Shown piece after piece: positions 39,319-48,674 of a stretch of 64,000 nucleotides of DNA. This stretch comes from an uncultured Pelagibacteraceae bacterium (GTDB lineage: Bacteria > Pseudomonadota > Alphaproteobacteria > Pelagibacterales > Pelagibacteraceae), in the NCBI GenBank assembly GCA_902628635.1, contig CACONQ010000003.1:1-64000 (forward strand). Direction: 5' to 3'. Position numbers and translations under genes: made by a program. Numbering within the stretch: position 1 is the first letter of the stretch; each line of letters opens with the position of its first letter. The notes below the pieces were generated by a model, which made no database searches, had not been told where the DNA came from, and worked only from the letters and a program-made list of their open reading frames with translations.

Positions 39319-40304
39319 ACAATTTTTTTTAAAGTTTTAAGAATTTTTAATGCAAAAGAAATATTTGTTATAGGCTTTTTATTTTTTTTAATACAATTAA
39401 AAAAATAATTAATTTCGTCATACAAACTATCGTTTTGCTTTACTTTTGGAGTGAAATTTTTTCCAAGATAAATTTTGGCTTTTCTATTAAAAAATTTATT
39501 GTCAAAATAGGAAATATTTGGGTATTGTGCGTATTTATTAAATATTTTAATTTTATTATCAGTGTCCATCTCATTGAATAGTAACATTTTTTTGTTAGTT
39601 ATTATTGTAAAACGTCTTATCTTATCTGGATTTAACCAACTATTATTAATATCAATAAAGAAATTTTTGAATTTAAAACTCAAATTAGAAATATCTGCAA
39701 TGTTTTTTTTTAATATTGAATAACTAGAATTTTTTATTAGTTTGGGTAATTTATTAAATATATATAAAAATATACTTAAATCATGTGAAGAAAGATCGTA
39801 AGCGGCATTTACATCACTGCGTATCGGACCTAAATTTTGTCTTTGAAATTTCATATATAAAATTTTTCCATTTTTATTTGACGAAATATATTTTTTAATA
39901 AATTTAATATTATTATTAAATAAATAGATGTAACCAAACATTAATATTTTTTTATGATTTAGTTTTTTTATTTTTTTTAAATCTGAGTAACTTTTTAATC
40001 CTGGTTTTTCAATAAATATATTTTTGTTATTTTTGATACATAATTTTAAAAGATTATAATTTTTATTAGGTGGAGTTGCCAAAATAACATTTTGTATTTT
40101 TTTGTCATTAAGAATTGTTTTTAATTTCTTAACAATAATAAATTTATTTAGGTACCTTTTTTTTAAAATGATCGAATTTAAATGTTTTTCATCATAAATT
40201 ATAATTTTATTTTTTTTTATTTTAGAGAGAACTTTAGCTATATTTGTGCCCCAATAACCACATCCAATTAAGGCTGTATCATAATTTATTGTATCAATAT
40301 TCAT
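39315..40304 (-). CDS. Gfo/Idh/MocA family oxidoreductase
   Basis: A 329-residue NAD(P)-dependent sugar dehydrogenase-like protein. The N-terminus has the Rossmann motif IGCGYWGTNIAKVLS, then ILATPP and the EKPG motif (IFIEKPG) where the catalytic Lys sits; a C-terminal substrate domain follows. In glycan clusters such enzymes make or remodel UDP- or GDP-sugars. It is on the opposite strand to its neighbours. Substrate unknown. Confidence 0.85.
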   Translation of the reverse strand: MNIDTINYDTALIGCGYWGTNIAKVLSKIKKNKIIIYDEKHLNSIILKKRYLNKFIIVKKLKTILNDKKIQNVILATPPNKNYNLLKLCIKNNKNIFIEKPGLKSYSDLKKIKKLNHKKILMFGYIYLFNNNIKFIKKYISSNKNGKILYMKFQRQNLGPIRSDVNAAYDLSSHDLSIFLYIFNKLPKLIKNSSYSILKKNIADISNLSFKFKNFFIDINNSWLNPDKIRRFTIITNKKMLLFNEMDTDNKIKIFNKYAQYPNISYFDNKFFNRKAKIYLGKNFTPKVKQNDSLYDEINYFFNCIKKNKKPITNISFALKILKTLKKIV

Positions 40305-40334
40305 TATTTTGTATTAAATAATTATAATTTAGAA

Positions 40335-41219
40335 ATGCAGTTTTCAATAATAATACCCACATTTGAAAATCATAAATATCTCAAAACATCTATTAATTCT
40401 ATTAAAAAGAATTCGAAATTTAATCATGAAATTATTGTACATATAAATGGAAAAGATAAAGAAACTGAAAATTTCTTAATTAATTCAAACATAAAATGTA
40501 CGAAAACCGAAAAGAACATTGGTTTATGTAGTGGTGTAAATATAGCAGCCAGTAAATCCAGACATGATTTTATAGTTTATGCACATGATGATATGTATTT
40601 TTGCCCGGATTGGGACACCCATTTAATAAATGAGATTAGTTTAATAAAACATAAAAAATTTTACTTTTCATCAACACAAATTTCACCCTCAAAACCACTT
40701 AAAGGATCAGTAACAAACCATATTTCTTTCGATTGTGGTGAAGATATTGAAAGCTTTAATGAGAAAAAATTAATCGAAAACTACAAAAGTTTAGAATTTC
40801 ATGATCTACAGGGATCTCACTGGGCACCTCATATCATGACACGAAAAATGTGGTCTGAAATTGGTGGTTTTAGTGAAGAATTTAACCCAGGATTTGGATC
40901 TGATCCCGATCTAAATATGAAAATGTGGAAAAATGGAGTAAGAATTTTTAAAGGAGTTAATAAATCCCGTGTTTATCATTTTGGCTCACAGACTACGAGA
41001 AAAAATAAAGATATAATTAGAAATAATGCAAATAATACTTTTTTATTAAAGTGGGGGATATCAATTGAATTTTTTGTCAAGTTTTACCTGAAGAGAGGAT
41101 TGAAATATATTAAGCCACTTGATGAATTTAAATTATCGGCAAATAATATTATTCCTTATATTTTATGTAAATTTAAATTTTTATTGATTAAATTGTTTTA
41201 CAAAAATGGAAAAAACTAA
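40335..41219 (+). CDS. Family 2 glycosyltransferase
   Basis: A 294-residue GT-A fold enzyme. It opens FSIIIPTFENHKYLKTSI, has the metal-binding acidic segment AHDDMYF (DxD type), and later the WAPHIMTRKMWSEIGGFSEEF acceptor region with GSDPDLNMK. It forms a glycosidic bond from a nucleotide sugar to an unknown acceptor. It diverges from the dehydrogenase gene across 30 bases, and its end overlaps the GT11 gene by 14 bases, so the two are probably coupled. Confidence 0.88.
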   Translation: MQFSIIIPTFENHKYLKTSINSIKKNSKFNHEIIVHINGKDKETENFLINSNIKCTKTEKNIGLCSGVNIAASKSRHDFIVYAHDDMYFCPDWDTHLINEISLIKHKKFYFSSTQISPSKPLKGSVTNHISFDCGEDIESFNEKKLIENYKSLEFHDLQGSHWAPHIMTRKMWSEIGGFSEEFNPGFGSDPDLNMKMWKNGVRIFKGVNKSRVYHFGSQTTRKNKDIIRNNANNTFLLKWGISIEFFVKFYLKRGLKYIKPLDEFKLSANNIIPYILCKFKFLLIKLFYKNGKN

Positions 41220-42108
41220 AAAAAAATTAATTGTAAGAATAGCTGAAGGCCTCGGTAACCAATTATTTATGTATGCAAATGGCTATGCTTTATCAAAAAA
41301 ATACAATTGCGACTTATATATAGATGATACTTCGGGATATTTTAAAAAAAAAAATAAAAATAGAAGTTATGAGTTAGATAATTTTTTAATTGAGTCTAAT
41401 ATTGCAGATAATAATCTTAAATACGATACATATATTAGAGATATTCGAAGAAAAATTAAAAAAAAATTAGATTTTTTTGGAAAAAAGAAATTCCTTCTTG
41501 AGTCAAAAAATAGTACAAAAAAAACTGCATTTAATAAGATAGACCTTAATGATTATTCAGATAAAATTTATATTGAAGGTCATTATGAGTCTGAAAAATA
41601 TTTTATTGATTATAAGAAAGAAATTATTCAATTTTTTAAGATAAAAAAAGAAAAAGTTGATATAAATAATAGATACAAAAAAGACATTGATAATTCAAAT
41701 TCGGTATCAATTTGTATTAGACAGAATAGATATTCAGAAGGAAAATATAAGGACCACAATAAATCCAATAAATTTACTAAAGATACAATAGATTATATTT
41801 ACAAATCCATTGAACATATAAAAAAAAACGTTGAAAAACCAAAATTCTTTATATGGTCCAATGATTTATCCAATCTTAGTGATTATTTTAATCGGGATGA
41901 GTGTATTTTTATTGATAATAAAAAAAATAAATCTGTAAACGATTTCTATTTATTTAATTTTTGTAAGCATTTCATTGTTGGTCCAACGTCTTTTCATTGG
42001 TGGGGCGCTTGGTTGAATGAAAATCCAAATAAAATTTGTATTAGACCTTCAAATTTAAATCCATCCAATAATATTGATTTTTGGCCTGAAAATTGGATCT
42101 CAATTTAG
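41206..42108 (+). CDS. Family 11 glycosyltransferase (alpha-1,2-fucosyltransferase-like)
   Basis: A 300-residue protein with the GT11 hallmark motifs: AEGLGNQLFMYANGYAL at the N-terminus, CIRQNRYSE with the conserved Arg-containing donor loop, and VGPTSFHWWGAWL near the C-terminus. GT11 enzymes move fucose from GDP-fucose to galactose. No GDP-fucose synthesis genes lie in the window, so the true donor cannot be told from context. The last 4 bases overlap the integrase gene on the other strand. Confidence 0.88.
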   Translation: MEKTKKKLIVRIAEGLGNQLFMYANGYALSKKYNCDLYIDDTSGYFKKKNKNRSYELDNFLIESNIADNNLKYDTYIRDIRRKIKKKLDFFGKKKFLLESKNSTKKTAFNKIDLNDYSDKIYIEGHYESEKYFIDYKKEIIQFFKIKKEKVDINNRYKKDIDNSNSVSICIRQNRYSEGKYKDHNKSNKFTKDTIDYIYKSIEHIKKNVEKPKFFIWSNDLSNLSDYFNRDECIFIDNKKNKSVNDFYLFNFCKHFIVGPTSFHWWGAWLNENPNKICIRPSNLNPSNNIDFWPENWISI

Positions 42109-43058
42109 ATTTTTATTTTGTTAAGCGCATTATTTTTAAATATATTTGCCTCTCTAATATATCTCCTAACCATTTGTGTAGTTTTATGACCTGTCATAGC
42201 CATTATGCTTCGCTCATCTGCGCCTGAATCTGCAGCTACTGTTGCAAAACCCGACCTTAAACTATGGCCTGAAAAATTTTTGTTTTCGATACCTGCTAAT
42301 TTTAAATACTCTTTCATTAATAAAACTACAGATTGGTCAGTTAATCTTTTGTCTGTTAATGACAAACCTTTAGAAAATCTTCTAAAAATAGGTCCAGACT
42401 TTATTTTAGAAATCTCTAACCATTTTTTTAGATTTGTAACAGGACAGTAAATTTCATTATCAAAGTAGGGTAGTCCTTTAGTCATTCCTTCTCCGAATTG
42501 GTCAGTTTTTGATCTTTTAATAGTGATTTTAAGACCCTCAGGAACAAATTCTAAATCCTCATGATCAATTGAAATAAGCTCAGTTCTTCTAAAGCCTCCT
42601 CCAAAGCCAATTAAGATTATTGATTTGTCTCTAAGTTTTTTTATTTCCTCGGTTTTTTGTTCATTTATTACATCAATAATTGATTTTAAATGATTGATTA
42701 ATATAGGTTTTTTACCTTTCTGAATACTTCCTTTAACCCTTCTTATCCCCATTAAATTTTCAACAATGATTGGATGTTTTGTGTCTAGATAATGCCCTTT
42801 AAGTCTATGAACCATGCTTATTGAAACTAATCTTCGTCTTAAGGTGCTTATTTTTGATTTCTTAGAAAGATACGTTAGGTACAAAGAAACTATTTTTGGC
42901 TCTGTTGGTAATGAATTAAATCCATGCTTTGCACAAAAAGCTCCGAAGTCTTTAAAATCAGATTTATAAGCTCTTAAAGTATTGTTTGCCTTAGAGCTTT
43001 TAAGGTTATTTAAAGTTGCCTCATGAAGCGATTTTAAATCTGTTGTCAGTTCATTCAT
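42105..43058 (-). CDS. Tyrosine recombinase, Cre/Xer-like
   Basis: A 317-residue site-specific recombinase. The N-terminal SAM-like core-binding domain spans residues 1-120. The catalytic set is Arg157 in GFRRTEL, Lys184 in RSKTDQ, His265 and Arg268 in SGHSLRSG, His291 in MTGHKT and nucleophile Tyr300 in RRYIRE. The motif SGHS followed by an Arg and the spacing to the Tyr resemble Cre. There is no arm-binding domain of the lambda type. A 14-7-14 inverted repeat lies 3 bases upstream of its start. It forms the right end of the glycan island and could be either an island integrase or a chromosomal resolvase. Confidence 0.93.
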   Translation of the reverse strand: MNELTTDLKSLHEATLNNLKSSKANNTLRAYKSDFKDFGAFCAKHGFNSLPTEPKIVSLYLTYLSKKSKISTLRRRLVSISMVHRLKGHYLDTKHPIIVENLMGIRRVKGSIQKGKKPILINHLKSIIDVINEQKTEEIKKLRDKSIILIGFGGGFRRTELISIDHEDLEFVPEGLKITIKRSKTDQFGEGMTKGLPYFDNEIYCPVTNLKKWLEISKIKSGPIFRRFSKGLSLTDKRLTDQSVVLLMKEYLKLAGIENKNFSGHSLRSGFATVAADSGADERSIMAMTGHKTTQMVRRYIREANIFKNNALNKIKI

Positions 43059-43061
43059 ATA

Positions 43062-43096
43062 ATTACTATTGATAACAATTAATTATCATTAGTAAT
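43062..43096. repeat. 14-7-14 inverted repeat, candidate recombinase core site
   Basis: Left arm ATTACTATTGATAA (43062-43075), spacer CAATTAA (43076-43082), right arm TTATCATTAGTAAT (43083-43096). Arms match at 13 of 14 positions. Arm and spacer sizes fit a two-protomer recombinase core site (loxP is 13-8-13 and dif is 11-6-11), and the inner ends ATAA/TTAT recall dif. The position just before the recombinase ATG would also suit an autoregulatory operator. Activity is inferred. Confidence 0.6.
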
Positions 43097-43140
43097 ATAT
43101 TAAGTGATTTTAAATGTCAATAGTTTAATTTAAAAAATAT

Positions 43141-43317
43141 ATGGGTTCAATTGATGGTGAAATACCAGCTTCATTTTTTTTTATAATATCGTTAGGTTTT
43201 ATATTGTTAAGTTACATTCAATATAAAAAAACTGGAAAAAGTATTGAGACAATATTTTTATCTATTATGGCTATATTATTTGTAATTAGCTATTTTATTC
43301 TAATCTTTTATCGTTAA
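43141..43317 (+). CDS. Small membrane protein, 58 residues
   Basis: ATG 43141 to TAA 43317. The 58-residue product begins MGSIDGEIPASF, then has two hydrophobic helices (about residues 12-25 and 38-56) separated by a basic loop QYKKTGKS. I do not recognise the family. Codon usage and hydrophobic layout look like a real gene, and a second tiny membrane gene follows 10 bases later on the same strand. Lies between the recombinase and the structured RNA. Confidence 0.55.
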   Translation: MGSIDGEIPASFFFIISLGFILLSYIQYKKTGKSIETIFLSIMAILFVISYFILIFYR

Positions 43318-43327
43318 ATTAAAAAAT

Positions 43328-43492
43328 ATGATTAAGTATTTAATTCCAGCAATATTAATAGTTATAATCGCATTTATACTTCTTTTTAAATGGCCAGTTG
43401 TTGATGAAAAAAATAAAAAAAAAATAAGTCTTACATTATTATTCAGCACAATTTTCTTAATTGTTGCTTTAGTTGCTTTGTTAATTGATTAA
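43328..43492 (+). CDS. Small membrane protein, 54 residues
   Basis: ATG 43328 to TAA 43492. The product starts MIKYLIPAILIV and has two hydrophobic helices with a lysine-rich loop (DEKNKKKISL). It has the same helix-loop-helix design as the preceding 58-residue protein. No family recognised. Together the two may form a paired small membrane complex, which is inference. Confidence 0.55.
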   Translation: MIKYLIPAILIVIIAFILLFKWPVVDEKNKKKISLTLLFSTIFLIVALVALLID

Positions 43493-43548
43493 AATTATCC
43501 CCATTATTCCCACCTGTTAAAAACTTAATAAATTCAACGATAAAGTGA

Positions 43549-43554
43549 TATATT
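43549..43554 (+). promoter_or_regulatory. Candidate -10 box for structured RNA/ogt transcript
   Basis: TATATT at 43549-43554 is preceded at 18 bases by the weak -35 candidate TTAATA (43525-43530). Transcription would start at about 43560, some 25 bases before the first RNA hairpin. AT-rich context makes such matches frequent, so this is tentative. Confidence 0.35.
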
Positions 43555-43569
43555 CAACCTTCCCTATTT

Positions 43570-43768
43570 GGTATTGTTAGATGAATTAAGGGGCAACCCT
43601 TAACTGGCCGACTGGGGAAAGGCCGAGAGGACCAAGCCCAGGGGGCAGAAAGCTCTACGGAGTAGCGCTAAAATCGTAGGGCGGAAGGCATGGCGGTAGC
43701 GCAATCAACGACGTGCCAAAACTACTGTTCTTTGCACCCTAAAAAGTGCAAGGAAACAGGGGTTTTTC
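43570..43768 (+). ncRNA. Highly structured RNA, candidate leader or ncRNA
   Basis: A locally GC-rich stretch with many pairings. H1: TTAAGGG/CCCTTAA (43586-43603) closed by a GCAA tetraloop. H2: GGCC/GGCC (43606-43609 with 43621-43624). A pseudoknot from the H2 loop: CTGGG (43612-43616) with CCCAG (43637-43641). H4: CTACG/CGTAG (43655-43659, 43675-43679). H5: GGCATG/CGTGCC (43687-43692, 43712-43717). A kissing pair between loops: GCGCTA (43665-43670) with TAGCGC (43697-43702). H6: 13 bp with one bulge (43725-43737 with 43746-43759), then TTTTT at 43763. The ogt-like ATG is at 43772 and AGGGG (43758-43762) may be its SD, so this may be a cis-regulatory leader. It does not look like tmRNA, RNase P RNA or SRP RNA. 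Confidence 0.7.
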
Positions 43769-43771
43769 TTC

Positions 43772-44056
43772 ATGAAAGGTACTAGATTTCAAATTAAAGT
43801 CTGGAATTACTTAAAATTAATACCTAAAGGTTCGGTAAAAACCTATAAACAGGTGGCAATAGCAATAAATAGCCCTAAATCTGCTAGAGCAGTTGCCAAT
43901 GCCTGCGCAAAGAACCCATACGCACCTAAAATACCTTGTCATAGAGTAATAAGATCTGATGGCGGTCTAGGTGGATATTCAGGTTCTGGGGGCATTAAAA
44001 CGAAGAAAAAGCTACTTAAAAATGAGGGTTTTTTGCCAAAAAAGGCGCATTTTTAA
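43772..44056 (+). CDS. Minimal alkylguanine-DNA alkyltransferase (DNA-binding domain only)
   Basis: A 94-residue protein that equals the C-terminal domain of O6-alkylguanine-DNA alkyltransferases (Ogt/Ada-C). The acceptor motif PCHRV is intact (Cys56), with the arginine finger region SARAVANACAKNP and the glycine loop GGLGGYSGSGG. The usual N-terminal domain (about 80 residues) is missing. Alkyltransferase-like (ATL) proteins have Trp in place of the Cys; this one keeps Cys, so it could transfer alkyl groups. The gene begins 4 bases after the U tract of the structured RNA. Confidence 0.85.
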   Translation: MKGTRFQIKVWNYLKLIPKGSVKTYKQVAIAINSPKSARAVANACAKNPYAPKIPCHRVIRSDGGLGGYSGSGGIKTKKKLLKNEGFLPKKAHF

Positions 44057-44424
44057 ACACTTTTTTGTTATTAATAAAAATTCATTAATGTTTTTTAATA
44101 TTTCACCCTTTAGTTGTACTATAAAACACAAAATGCTTAAATAAGACCCTCCAATGGCCTTTTAAACGCTATATTCCATATCTGCAATTCTATTGAATTT
44201 TACCCATTTTATATTGATAAATTGACCTTCTTTAATTCATAAAATTAAATTTCGATGGATTAAATATAAGAGAATAACTTAATACTTAAATTATTCAAAG
44301 TTTTAGAAATATTTTACATGAATTTTAATTATTTTATCTAATTTTACTTACTTTTTATATAAAATATATTAATTAATTTAAGCAGTAATTACACATATTT
44401 ACATTATAATATTAAAGTAAAATA
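44057..44424. other. Non-coding AT-rich gap at strand switch
   Basis: About 370 bases with no convincing gene on either strand. It is extremely AT-rich with short runs of A and T, stop codons in all frames, and no strong palindrome or RNA signature. It lies between the end of the + oriented half and the start of the - oriented half of the window, so both flanking genes converge here. Confidence 0.7.
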
Positions 44425-45300
44425 TTAGTATTTAGGTAAGTTTGTATTACCTTTTAAATTTTTTAAAATTAATTCTCTCCTGAATACATAATATCCAGAA
44501 AGGCATATTACTGTAAGTCCAGTAAATGTCCAAACATCAGGAAAATCATTAAATATTAAATATCCCAATATTATGTTTGGAATTATCTCGAAATAACCAA
44601 AAGGAGCTAATTTAGAGGCATCAGCATATCTGAGTGAGTAAATTAGACATATATGTCCTAAACAAGCAAAAATTCCCATTATACCTAACCATATCCATTG
44701 ATTCATAGTTGGATTTATCCAAACAATTGGAACAAAAAATGATGAAATGAAAGCCCCTACTACACCAGTTAATAATAATGTTAATAGTGGATTATCTGTT
44801 GAATGTAATTTTCTAGTTATTACTAAATATATTCCATAAAAAAATCCAGTACCTAAACCTGCTAAAGTGGCTAAATTAAAATCTAAATATCCTGGTCTAA
44901 TTACTATTAAACTTCCTAAAAAACCAATAAGAACTGCTGCCCATCTCCTTACTCCAACTTTTTCTTTTAAAAAAAAAGGAGATAATGCTGTCGTTATAAG
45001 TGGCGCTACAAATGCTAATGTCAGAGCCTTAGCCATTGAAATAATTGAAATTGAGTAGAAGAAACAAATATTTGCAGAAAATAAAGTCAATCCTCTAATA
45101 ATTTGCAATTTTGGATTCTCAGAAAAAGTTAAATTCTTCCTGAAAAAAAAATACATTAAAGGCAAAGTCCAAAATACTGTGAAAAAATATCTTGCCCATG
45201 TTATTTGAAAAAATGATAGTTCAGATGAAAGATATTTTGCAATAGCATCCATAAATGGCAATAATGCCCAGGCTGAAAGGTTCAAAATTATTGCCTTCAT
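44425..45300 (-). CDS. EamA/RhaT family transporter
   Basis: Drug/metabolite transporter of 291 residues with ten transmembrane helices in two EamA repeats. It starts ILNLSAWALLPFMDAIAKYLS and includes the ARYFFTVFW segment after the second helix, similar to the S-adenosylmethionine uptake or general DMT subgroup. No substrate can be assigned. Followed after one base by the AEC-transporter gene upstream on the same strand, so they share an operon. Confidence 0.85.
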   Translation of the reverse strand: MKAIILNLSAWALLPFMDAIAKYLSSELSFFQITWARYFFTVFWTLPLMYFFFRKNLTFSENPKLQIIRGLTLFSANICFFYSISIISMAKALTLAFVAPLITTALSPFFLKEKVGVRRWAAVLIGFLGSLIVIRPGYLDFNLATLAGLGTGFFYGIYLVITRKLHSTDNPLLTLLLTGVVGAFISSFFVPIVWINPTMNQWIWLGIMGIFACLGHICLIYSLRYADASKLAPFGYFEIIPNIILGYLIFNDFPDVWTFTGLTVICLSGYYVFRRELILKNLKGNTNLPKY

Positions 45301-46203
45301 TTAAGAAAAATATCTTAAAGCAAAATATACTACAATAGGAATAGTTATAAACGACATCACTGTTGATACAACAATGGTGCTGGCCACGCTATCAACAACT
45401 TTTTTAGGAGAATAAATTGAACCAACCAAATAATTCAATACTGCACTTGGCATCGAGCATTGTATTAATAGAACTCCAGCAGCAAAGCCTTCTAAATCAA
45501 AAAACCAAATCAATCCAATACCAATTAATGGTCCAATAAACATTCTAGTTATTGATGATATTACCGCTTTATTAAAAGAAAAAACCTTCAATCTAGTTAA
45601 TGCTATACCAAGAGACATTAATATTAAAAAGATAGTTACATACATTAACCACTCTGTTGTATTTATTACAAAAACCGGCATATCAATTTCATAAAATAAT
45701 ACTATAGCTGAAAAAATAATTGCATAAAAAGGAGGATTTTTAATTATTACATCCAAATTAAATTTTCTATCAGCTAAAAAAACACCAACAGTAAAATGCA
45801 TTAAGATAATTAAAGAGGTAATAGAGGCGGACACTCCTAATCCTTGTGATCCATAAGCAAATAAACAAATTGGCAGGCCCATATTTCCAGTATTTGGAAA
45901 GATTAAAGGTGGCAACTCTCTTATTATATCTTTTGTATTAATTAAAAAAAGATTAATTATACCAACAATTGAGAAACAGATAATTGCGAGTAAATAGTAC
46001 CAAAAATAGTCTCTAAATATTTCAAAATTAATTCCGGTTGAAGTAACAGCGTAAATAACCATTGCTGGAGTACCAATATTAGCTGCAAAATTTGTGATAA
46101 ATTTAGTATCAATTTTTGGGTTTTTTTTACCTAAATAATACCCAATACCAACAACAAAGAATACTGGAAATACTACCTCAAAAAGTTTGATATAGATTTC
46201 CAT
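45301..46203 (-). CDS. AEC family transporter (auxin efflux carrier type)
   Basis: A 300-residue membrane protein of the AEC (auxin efflux carrier/malonate transporter) family. It has ten predicted transmembrane helices; conserved features are the GYYLGKK region after the first helix, the PNTGNMGLPICLFAYG motif, and the MPSAVLNYLVG motif near the C-terminus. Bacterial members carry organic acids, but the substrate here is unknown. It overlaps the homoserine dehydrogenase stop by one base. Confidence 0.87.
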   Translation of the reverse strand: MEIYIKLFEVVFPVFFVVGIGYYLGKKNPKIDTKFITNFAANIGTPAMVIYAVTSTGINFEIFRDYFWYYLLAIICFSIVGIINLFLINTKDIIRELPPLIFPNTGNMGLPICLFAYGSQGLGVSASITSLIILMHFTVGVFLADRKFNLDVIIKNPPFYAIIFSAIVLFYEIDMPVFVINTTEWLMYVTIFLILMSLGIALTRLKVFSFNKAVISSITRMFIGPLIGIGLIWFFDLEGFAAGVLLIQCSMPSAVLNYLVGSIYSPKKVVDSVASTIVVSTVMSFITIPIVVYFALRYFS

Positions 46204-47489
46204 TAAAATAGTCTAATCACTATAGGTTTCTTGATTATATTTTTATTTGAACTAAAAGAATTTAAACATTTTTTTGAAAAATATTCCTTTACATTGTGTG
46301 TTATGATTATAATTGAAGCTTTCTTCTTAGAATTATCAGGAATTTGTATTAATCTTTGTATCGAAATTTTATACTTTGCTAACTGCTTAGTAATTTGCGA
46401 TAAAACACCTGGTTTATCTTTAACCTCAAATCTAAGGTAAAGAGAATTTACATAATTGTTTGAGTCATAAATTTGTATTTTTTTTCTTTTTTTTGAAGAA
46501 ATACCAAATGGGTATTTTATATTACCTCTTAATATTGATAAAAGATCCGACATTAAGGCAGATGAAGTGGGTCCAGGTCCGGCACCCTCCCCTTGTAAAA
46601 CACTTTCGCCAACTGGCTTGCCTTCTAATATGACTGCATTCATCACACCAGATACATTGGCAATATACGTATTATTTTTCACTAAGCACGGGTGTACTCT
46701 TTCAAATAATTTATTATCAATTATTTCAGTTATACCAAGTAATTTTATTCTTAAATTAAGTTGTTCAGCTATATCAAAGTCCTTACTTTCGATATTCTCT
46801 ATTCCTTCCATAAGGGATTTATTAGATGATATTCTTTTATTAAATGAAAGTGCTGACAAGATTTTAACCTTTGCCATAGCATCATAACCATTAAGATCTA
46901 ATTTTGGATTTCCTGGTTCGGCATAACCTAGCTTCTGTGCTTTTTTTAAAACATTGTGGAAATTATCTTTAGTAAATTCCATTTCTGATAATATATAGTT
47001 ACATGTACCATTTAAAATTCCATGAACTTTTGAAATTTTGTTTGTTGCAAGACCTTCTTTAATTGTTCTAAGAATAGGTATCCCTCCTCCAACAGAGGCC
47101 TCAAATTCTAGATTTACTTTATTCTTTTCCGCGATTTCCGATAGTTTATCACCGTGCTTTGAAATAAGGGCTTTGTTTGGAGTAATAACATGTATTTTTT
47201 TATTTAAAGCTTTTTCCACAATAGATTTTGAAATTCCATCAGAAAGACCTATACACTCAATTAAAATATCAATTTTATTTTTAAAAATATTTAGTGGATT
47301 AGTGTAAAAAATTTTTTTATCAATTTTATATTTCCTTTTTTTATTTTTATTTTTTGCTGAAATAGCTACGATTTTTATTTGTTTGCCTGTTTTTGTTTCG
47401 ATGTCCTTTTTTTTTATTTTTAATTCATTATAAAGATAAAGACCAACTTGACCTAATCCAACAATAGCAATATTATAATTTTTTTTCAT
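46203..47489 (-). CDS. hom: Homoserine dehydrogenase
   Basis: Reduces aspartate semialdehyde to homoserine on the pathway to methionine, threonine and isoleucine. The 428 residues have the NAD(P) loop GLGQVGLYLYNEL, the catalytic region with GILNGTCNYILSEM, the GYDAMAKVKILS segment, and a C-terminal ACT domain (about residues 345-425, FEVKDKPGVLSQITKQLAK). ACT domains commonly sense threonine. Its product feeds the O-acetylhomoserine sulfhydrylase-like enzyme encoded at 49760. Confidence 0.95.
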   Translation of the reverse strand: MKKNYNIAIVGLGQVGLYLYNELKIKKKDIETKTGKQIKIVAISAKNKNKKRKYKIDKKIFYTNPLNIFKNKIDILIECIGLSDGISKSIVEKALNKKIHVITPNKALISKHGDKLSEIAEKNKVNLEFEASVGGGIPILRTIKEGLATNKISKVHGILNGTCNYILSEMEFTKDNFHNVLKKAQKLGYAEPGNPKLDLNGYDAMAKVKILSALSFNKRISSNKSLMEGIENIESKDFDIAEQLNLRIKLLGITEIIDNKLFERVHPCLVKNNTYIANVSGVMNAVILEGKPVGESVLQGEGAGPGPTSSALMSDLLSILRGNIKYPFGISSKKRKKIQIYDSNNYVNSLYLRFEVKDKPGVLSQITKQLAKYKISIQRLIQIPDNSKKKASIIIITHNVKEYFSKKCLNSFSSNKNIIKKPIVIRLF

Positions 47490-47490
47490 T

Positions 47491-47661
47491 TTAGTTTTCT
47501 ATATTTGGAAAATCTTTATTTTTATTATAATTTATTAACATTTCTTTATATTCATCAATCGATAAATCATACAAATTATTTTCATTAAAAGAACTTGTAT
47601 CTACTTTTTTATTAGACATACATGAAGTTAGTAAAAATAAAAGTATTATAAATATTCTCAT
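47491..47661 (-). CDS. Small lipoprotein, 56 residues
   Basis: ATG at 47661-47659 to TAA at 47493-47491. The product has an N-terminal hydrophobic signal with lipobox LTSC (MRIFIILLFLLTSC), then a short polar domain rich in Asn/Asp/Lys with SIDEYKEMLINY. It is coupled to argC by a 4-base overlap: the argC stop and this ATG share TCAT on the plus strand (ATGA on the coding strand). I do not recognise the family. The lipobox and the coupling make it likely to be real. Confidence 0.7.
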   Translation of the reverse strand: MRIFIILLFLLTSCMSNKKVDTSSFNENNLYDLSIDEYKEMLINYNKNKDFPNIEN

Positions 47662-48674
47662 ATAAGTCCCATTTTTTCAGGAAAATTAAATTTTTTATTC
47701 ATGTTTTGAATGGCTTGACCAGATCCACCTTTTATTAGGTTATCGATGCTTGATAAAATTATCAGTTTATTTTTATATTTTGACTTACATACTGATATTT
47801 TACAATAATTAGTATTAATAACATCATTTGTACTTAAATAAGTATTTTTACTCATTATTTTTATAAAATGATCATTTTTATAGAAATTTAGAAGCGTTTT
47901 ATAAATTTTATCTTGGGTAATATTTTTATTCATATCTATATATATTGTAGTTAGTATTCCTCTAAACATTGGTGTTAAATGTGGTGTAAAACTAAAATTT
48001 ATTTTTTTATTAGATGCTAAATTTAATTCGTTTTGAATTTCAGAATTATGTCTATGAAAGCCTACCCCATATGCACTAAGTGATTCGTATAAGTTTTTAT
48101 TTTTATATTTTTTATGGACACCTCTCCCAGCACCTGAATAACCAGATTTAGAGTCTATAATAATATTTTTCAAACTAATCATATTTTTTTTAACAAGTGG
48201 GACAAGTGGTAATAAAATTGATGTTGGGTAACATCCTGGGCAAGATAAAATTTGAAATTTTTTTAAATTCTTTGAGTTAAGTTCGGGTAATGAATAAATA
48301 CTTTTTTTAATATTTATTTGTGCTTTATGTTTTTGTTTGTACCATTTTAGGTAGTCTTTAGCACTCAGTCTAAAGTCAGCTGCTAGATCAATTAAAACAT
48401 TATTTTTATTTAAATTATTTGATATGATCTGTGCTTCACCATTTGGCAATGCAGTAAAGATAAGGTCAACATCTTTTAATTTAGTTTTATCAAATTTAGT
48501 TATTTTGGGTAATTTTTTCTTAATAGATTTATCAAAGAAAGAAATTTTCTTTCCGACAGATGAACTCCCACAAAGATATTTAATCTCTACTCTTTTATGA
48601 TTTAGTAAGAGTTTAATTAATTGAATACCAATATAACCAGTACAACCAGCTACTAATACATTAAGTTTAGCCAT
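47658..48674 (-). CDS. argC: N-acetyl-gamma-glutamyl-phosphate reductase
   Basis: Third enzyme of arginine synthesis. The 338-residue protein has the Rossmann opening VLVAGCTGYIGIQLIKLL and the catalytic Cys in LSCPGCYPTS, with the later GYSGAGRGV segment. Length is normal for the ArgC type 1 group. It follows rpsI after 33 bases on the minus strand and overlaps the small lipoprotein gene. Confidence 0.95.
   Translation of the reverse strand: MAKLNVLVAGCTGYIGIQLIKLLLNHKRVEIKYLCGSSSVGKKISFFDKSIKKKLPKITKFDKTKLKDVDLIFTALPNGEAQIISNNLNKNNVLIDLAADFRLSAKDYLKWYKQKHKAQINIKKSIYSLPELNSKNLKKFQILSCPGCYPTSILLPLVPLVKKNMISLKNIIIDSKSGYSGAGRGVHKKYKNKNLYESLSAYGVGFHRHNSEIQNELNLASNKKINFSFTPHLTPMFRGILTTIYIDMNKNITQDKIYKTLLNFYKNDHFIKIMSKNTYLSTNDVINTNYCKISVCKSKYKNKLIILSSIDNLIKGGSGQAIQNMNKKFNFPEKMGLI

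What the first reader, a model, noticed from the sequence alone, without database searches (positions are those of the whole stretch)
43570..43771. Unclassified multi-stem, pseudoknotted RNA upstream of a minimal alkyltransferase gene
About 200 bases of unusually GC-rich sequence in a very AT-rich genome contain six helices, a GNRA-capped perfect stem, one likely pseudoknot (CTGGG/CCCAG) and one likely kissing-loop pair (GCGCTA/TAGCGC). The last helix is 13 bp with one bulged A, followed by GGGG and TTTTT and, 4 bases on, the alkyltransferase ATG. AGGGG next to the helix is the only plausible Shine-Dalgarno sequence, so the helix could gate translation or terminate transcription. It does not match tmRNA, RNase P RNA or 4.5S RNA signatures I know. 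It may be a riboswitch-like leader or an independent ncRNA. A SAR11 sRNA family called SAR11_0636 exists; I cannot tell if this is it.
Basis: partly seen in the sequence, partly recalled or inferred. Interest (0 to 1): 0.85.

Follow-up and report, generated by a model that had tools for sequence, protein, structure and literature searches.

The report
IMES-2 noncoding RNA gene in SAR11
This is a copy of IMES-2, an already catalogued ocean-bacterium RNA of unknown job; it is a stand-alone RNA gene that moves with its own control sequences and terminator, not a switch for the neighbouring DNA-repair gene, and the control sequences, which look like binding sites for the replication starter DnaA, give a first testable clue to when it is made.

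Summary
Window 43579-43719 (+) is a full-length match to Rfam RF02035, IMES-2 (155.3 bits, gathering score 54.7), so it is not unclassified. It is not an ogt leader. One copy occurs in 134 of 197 SAR11-family genomes in four unrelated gene contexts (mnmA; ogt; selO/rmuC; SNase/SRAP). Every clade has a 3' hairpin, usually with a T-run, unrelated in sequence between clades: an intrinsic terminator. The kissing loop GCGCTA/TAGCGC is strongly supported by covariation. The proposed CTGGG/CCCAG pseudoknot is an ordinary nested helix. tmRNA, RNase P and SRP RNA are found separately; 6S RNA is found in none of 197. IMES-2 is missing cleanly from the same locus in 18 near-complete genomes of this genus, so it is dispensable. 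New here, as far as I could check: two conserved upstream DNA elements travel with the RNA, a tandem DnaA-box-like repeat (TTATCCACANNNTTMACA) and a motif CAACYAnAnAGTGAT. Their spacing falls into two classes one helical turn apart, as expected for protein-bound DNA. Best reading: an autonomous, trans-acting, protein-binding structured RNA, possibly under DnaA or DnaA-like control. Its target remains unknown.

The parts
43579..43767 (+). IMES-2 RNA gene: Rfam core 43579-43719 plus 3' terminator; 5' end inferred, not mapped
   Evidence: cmscan RF02035 155.3 bits, model 1-141/141; homologues
43586..43603 (+). P1, 7-bp stem with GCAA tetraloop
   Evidence: structure; 100% of cells paired, 4 of 7 pairs with double changes
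43604..43648 (+).
   Evidence: 95% of cells paired, 9 of 11 pairs with double changes
43652..43682 (+). P3 hairpin with 15-nt loop carrying GCGCTA
43687..43717 (+). P4 hairpin with loop carrying TAGCGC and one G-A mismatch column that forms no standard pair in any of 60 sequences
43665..43670 (+). kissing-loop arm GCGCTA (P3 loop)
43697..43702 (+). kissing-loop arm TAGCGC (P4 loop)
43725..43767 (+). intrinsic terminator: 13-bp helix with one bulged A, GGGG, T5
   Evidence: unrelated hairpins at the same place in other clades
43534..43550 (+). conserved upstream DNA element TCAACGATAAAGTGATA; its GAT ends 28-31 nt before RNA nt 1 in homologues
   Evidence: only one match with up to 2 mismatches in the genome
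43495..43512 (+). tandem DnaA-box-like repeat (TTATCCCCA TTATTCCCA here; consensus TTATCCACANNNTTMACA)
43772..44056 (+). ogt, 94-aa O6-methylguanine-DNA methyltransferase domain protein with PCHRV; a neighbour, not part of the RNA unit
   Evidence: PF01035 E 2.6e-32; neighbour only in genus g1

Best explanation
The feature is a member of the IMES-2 family, a free-standing structured ncRNA gene of SAR11 bacteria. SHOWN: it has its own conserved upstream DNA elements and its own intrinsic terminator, and it occupies at least four unrelated gene neighbourhoods as one cassette. Its core folds into hairpins P1 to P4, and P3 and P4 are joined by a kissing-loop helix. It can be absent. INFERRED: the transcript of about 190 nt starts near 43579 and ends at 43767. 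Its production is controlled by a protein, DnaA or a DnaA-like factor, bound to the tandem repeat at about -76 or -86, which acts with a factor or polymerase at the -44 to -30 element. The finished RNA acts in trans by presenting the rigid P3-P4 domain and the invariant GAAA connector to a protein partner rather than by long antisense pairing. The target is not known.
For: Full-length Rfam match. One copy per genome in 134 of 197 family genomes. Four gene contexts (domains). 3' hairpins in every clade examined, unrelated in sequence. Kissing-loop covariation and covariation of the whole structure, 32 of 45 pairs with double changes and 0 of 500 shuffles. Clean absence at the orthologous locus in 18 genomes, confirmed genome-wide. 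Upstream elements in all genera, also where the surrounding coding sequence differs: tandem repeat score 13.2 of 15 against 8.97 for shuffles, spacing 45-48 or 54-58 and never 49-53. The invariant unpaired positions lie in loops and connectors, which suggests tertiary or protein contacts.
Against: No transcript data could be examined. No -10 box stands out statistically: best scores 4.91 against 4.83 for shuffles. DnaA binding is inferred from motif resemblance only. In the window's genus the boxes are degenerate, and the skew-defined origin region of a g4 contig showed no matching box cluster. Nothing identifies a protein partner.
Confidence: 0.75

Rival explanations
1. A cis-acting leader or riboswitch of ogt: the last helix terminates transcription or hides the AGGGG Shine-Dalgarno sequence in response to a ligand.
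For: ATG lies 4 nt after the T-run; ogt follows the RNA in all examined loci of genus g1.
Against: In the other genera examined the downstream gene is different or on the opposite strand. ogt is kept without the RNA in 18 genomes. The terminator hairpin is unrelated between clades and no conserved alternative pairing was seen.
Confidence: 0.04
2. A functional stand-in for 6S RNA, binding RNA polymerase, since 6S is not detected in SAR11.
For: 6S (RF00013) is found in 0 of 197 SAR11-family genomes while Caulobacter and E. coli controls ring. Similar size to 6S.
Against: The fold is four hairpins with a kissing loop, not one long rod with a central bubble. Many near-complete genomes have neither RNA.
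Confidence: 0.08
3. A trans-acting antisense sRNA that base-pairs with mRNAs through its unpaired segments.
For: Independent gene with terminator; purine-rich connectors such as CGGAAGG resemble Shine-Dalgarno sequence.
Against: Most of the RNA is in covarying helices and no long conserved single-stranded segment exists; no targets were sought.
Confidence: 0.25
4. The upstream tandem repeat is not a DnaA site but the site of another regulator, or is conserved for reasons unrelated to IMES-2 such as the C-terminus of mnmA. (This rivals only the DnaA part of the best explanation.)
For: Boxes overlap the end of mnmA in g2-g4; weak boxes in g1.
Against: The motif is kept where mnmA is not the neighbour (g1, g7, g9), and in the G009 sample the only match in 400 kb is at IMES-2, which speaks against the coding reading though not against another regulator.
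Confidence: 0.5

Closest known systems
IMES-2 RNA motif (Rfam RF02035)
   Same: Full-length match, same hairpins and consensus.
   Different: The Rfam model stops at 43719: no terminator and no upstream elements, and the structure line that cmscan prints shows no kissing loop (such lines may omit pseudoknots, so it may be annotated elsewhere).
IMES-1 RNA (RF02034)
   Same: Named in the same series of marine environmental RNAs (from memory).
   Different: No match over cut-off in 197 SAR11-family genomes.
SAR11_0636 element (Meyer et al. 2009, PMC2704228)
   Same: SAR11 intergenic structured RNA candidate found by the GC-rich intergenic approach.
   Different: Lies upstream of a hypothetical protein in strain HTCC1062; no such hit here at E up to 10.
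DnaA boxes and DnaA-regulated promoters
   Same: TTATCCACA is the high-affinity DnaA 9-mer (general knowledge); here tandem and upstream of a transcription unit.
   Different: Binding untested; second copy is divergent; degenerate in the window's genus.

Membership tests
IMES-2 (RF02035) | Score above the curated gathering threshold over the whole model | tested here: met
   155.3 vs 54.7 bits, model 1-141/141
IMES-2 (RF02035) | Consensus helices supported by covariation in homologues | tested here: met
   447 double-change cells, 0/500 shuffles
IMES-2 (RF02035) | High abundance as a small RNA in seawater (recalled from the original description) | not testable with these tools
   No transcript data available; original paper not in the held library
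Riboswitch / cis-regulatory leader | Conserved position upstream of related genes | tested here: not met
   Four unrelated contexts
Riboswitch / cis-regulatory leader | Conserved expression platform | tested here: not met
   3' hairpins unrelated between clades
6S RNA (RF00013) | Match to 6S model | tested here: not met
   0/197 genomes; no hit at the locus
tmRNA / RNase P / SRP RNA | Match to the family model at this locus | tested here: not met
   No hit at the locus; separate genes in the same genomes: tmRNA 14/14, RNase P 13/14, SRP 12/14
SAR11_0636 element | Match at the locus | tested here: inconclusive
   Only four Rfam families listed at E up to 10, none of them this; I did not check that Rfam holds this element, nor compare with its published alignment
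DnaA box | 9-mer TTWTNCACA | tested here: inconclusive
   Perfect first box in most g2 and many g3/g4 loci, degenerate in g1
DnaA box | DnaA binding | not testable with these tools
   needs footprinting

The most novel reading that the evidence does not exclude
IMES-2 is a replication- or growth-coupled ncRNA cassette of SAR11: DnaA bound to a helically phased tandem box drives or represses a locked-fold RNA that moves between loci as a unit, is lost repeatedly, and regulates a protein in streamlined cells that have few transcription factors.
Probability: 0.25. Interest if true: 0.72.

Novelty: new member of a known kind. Interest (0 to 1): 0.45.

Why it matters
To my knowledge IMES-2 has had no assigned function since it was catalogued, and SAR11 is among the most abundant organisms in the ocean. 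Showing that it is an autonomous, dispensable cassette with conserved upstream DNA sites turns an unknown function into concrete tests: what binds the sites, when the RNA is made, and what differs between closely related genomes with and without it.

Tried and rejected
Leader or riboswitch for ogt: rejected on synteny. Replacement of tmRNA, RNase P or SRP RNA: rejected. Phage or viral carriage: five pattern hits in viral contigs score at most 11.8 bits, or nothing, with the model; no match to a second pattern and no phage match. IMES-1 alternating with IMES-2: no IMES-1 over cut-off. Spread beyond SAR11: no hit among the other alphaproteobacterial genomes in a sample of 385. Fixed position at origin or terminus: in genus g1 it sits at a local GC-skew maximum in the window and in G043, but in g4 it is about 130 kb from the skew minimum and in g9 it is at no clear switch, so the idea was dropped. 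Classical -10 box: no enrichment over shuffles. Literature: no functional paper on IMES-2 in the held library.

Full report
WHAT IS THERE. The stretch 43570-43771 holds a compact GC-rich RNA followed by an intrinsic terminator. Rfam identifies 43579-43719 as IMES-2, RF02035, end to end at 155.3 bits against a threshold of 54.7, and no other family comes near. The finding is therefore real but not unclassified.

STRUCTURE. I aligned 60 distinct homologues from twelve genera. The kissing loop alone (GCGCTA in the P3 loop with TAGCGC in the P4 loop) has 94.2% of cells paired. Its two variable inner pairs switch between C-G, U-A and A-U and between G-C, A-U and U-A with no mispaired sequence among 60. 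Sliding the partner by 1 to 3 columns destroys the pairing. These sequences are related, so cell counts overstate independent events, but the variants GTTCTA/TAGAAC, GAACTA/TAGTTC, GTACTA/TAGTAC, GTGCTA/TAGCAC and GCACT/AGTGC are spread over several genera. CTGGG/CCCAG is the nested inner helix of P2, not a pseudoknot.

GENE UNIT. In genus g1 the RNA lies upstream of ogt. In genera g2, g3, g4, g6, g10, g11, g13 and g14 the upstream neighbour is mnmA where the contig shows it; in g7 it lies between selO and rmuC; in g9 between an SNase gene and an SRAP gene. Every clade has a 3' hairpin, but the hairpins are unrelated in sequence; most are followed by a T-run, while most g4 hairpins lack a run of four T. 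This is what terminators look like, not a conserved expression platform. Together these make a leader role for ogt very unlikely.

DISTRIBUTION. 134 of 197 family genomes carry one copy. With my own model no other alphaproteobacterium in a sample of 385 has it, and 20 near-complete g1 genomes lack it: nothing above 14.9 bits even at E 1. In 18 of those, ogt was located and the RNA unit is absent upstream of it. Presence and absence interleave on a tree of the locus proteins. Support is moderate and SAR11 recombines, so I conclude only that gain or loss probably happened more than once. The RNA is thus not a universally essential housekeeping RNA. tmRNA, RNase P and SRP RNA are separate genes in genomes with and without it; the one RNase P miss is the 84%-complete own genome.

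UPSTREAM ELEMENTS. Two conserved DNA elements accompany the RNA. The nearer one, CAACYAnAnAGTGAT, ends 28 to 31 nt before RNA nucleotide 1 and has no second match with two mismatches in the own genome. The farther one is a tandem repeat, TTATCCACANNNTTMACA, whose first half equals the high-affinity DnaA box in many g2, g3 and g4 loci and in g10. It scores 13.2 of 15 on average, against 8.97 in shuffles and 8.78 in neighbouring sequence. It is present where the flanking coding sequence is mnmA, where it overlaps the SNase stop codon (g9), and where neither gene is present (g1, g7), so coding constraint does not explain it. The distance from the start of the repeat to the end of the nearer element is 45-48 or 54-58 bp, never 49-53. 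A difference of about one helical turn is the usual sign of two proteins touching on the same face of DNA. I did not find this described, but the original IMES-2 paper is not in the held library, so novelty of the elements and of the kissing loop is not proven.

MECHANISM. Shown: autonomous unit, covarying fold, terminator, upstream DNA sites, dispensability. Inferred: transcription start near 43579, control by DnaA or a similar protein, action in trans on a protein partner. DnaA identity is about even odds: the motif match is striking in several genera, but it is degenerate in g1, no -10 box stands out, and the skew-defined origin region of a g4 contig lacks a matching cluster.

LIMITS. No expression data could be examined. 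From memory, IMES-1 and IMES-2 were described in 2009 as very abundant marine RNAs of unknown function; that was not checked here.

Noticed in passing
43062-43096: Near-palindrome ATTACTATTGATAACAATTAATTATCATTAGTAAT just upstream of the tyrosine recombinase gene (42105-43058, -), conserved in related genomes and near the local GC-skew maximum: looks like a Xer/dif-type chromosome-dimer resolution site.
   Followed up: partly
window 40001-48000: GC skew changes sign from positive to negative near 43 kb, as at a replication terminus; the same is seen around IMES-2 in closed genome G043, but not in g4 or g9.
   Followed up: partly
SAR11-family genomes: 6S RNA (RF00013) is not detected in any of 197 genomes, although controls including Caulobacter are; either lost or too divergent for the model.
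   Followed up: partly
43142-43495: Two tiny putative membrane-protein ORFs between the recombinase and IMES-2; in genomes without IMES-2 a similar small ORF ends directly before ogt (L058-L062).
   Followed up: no
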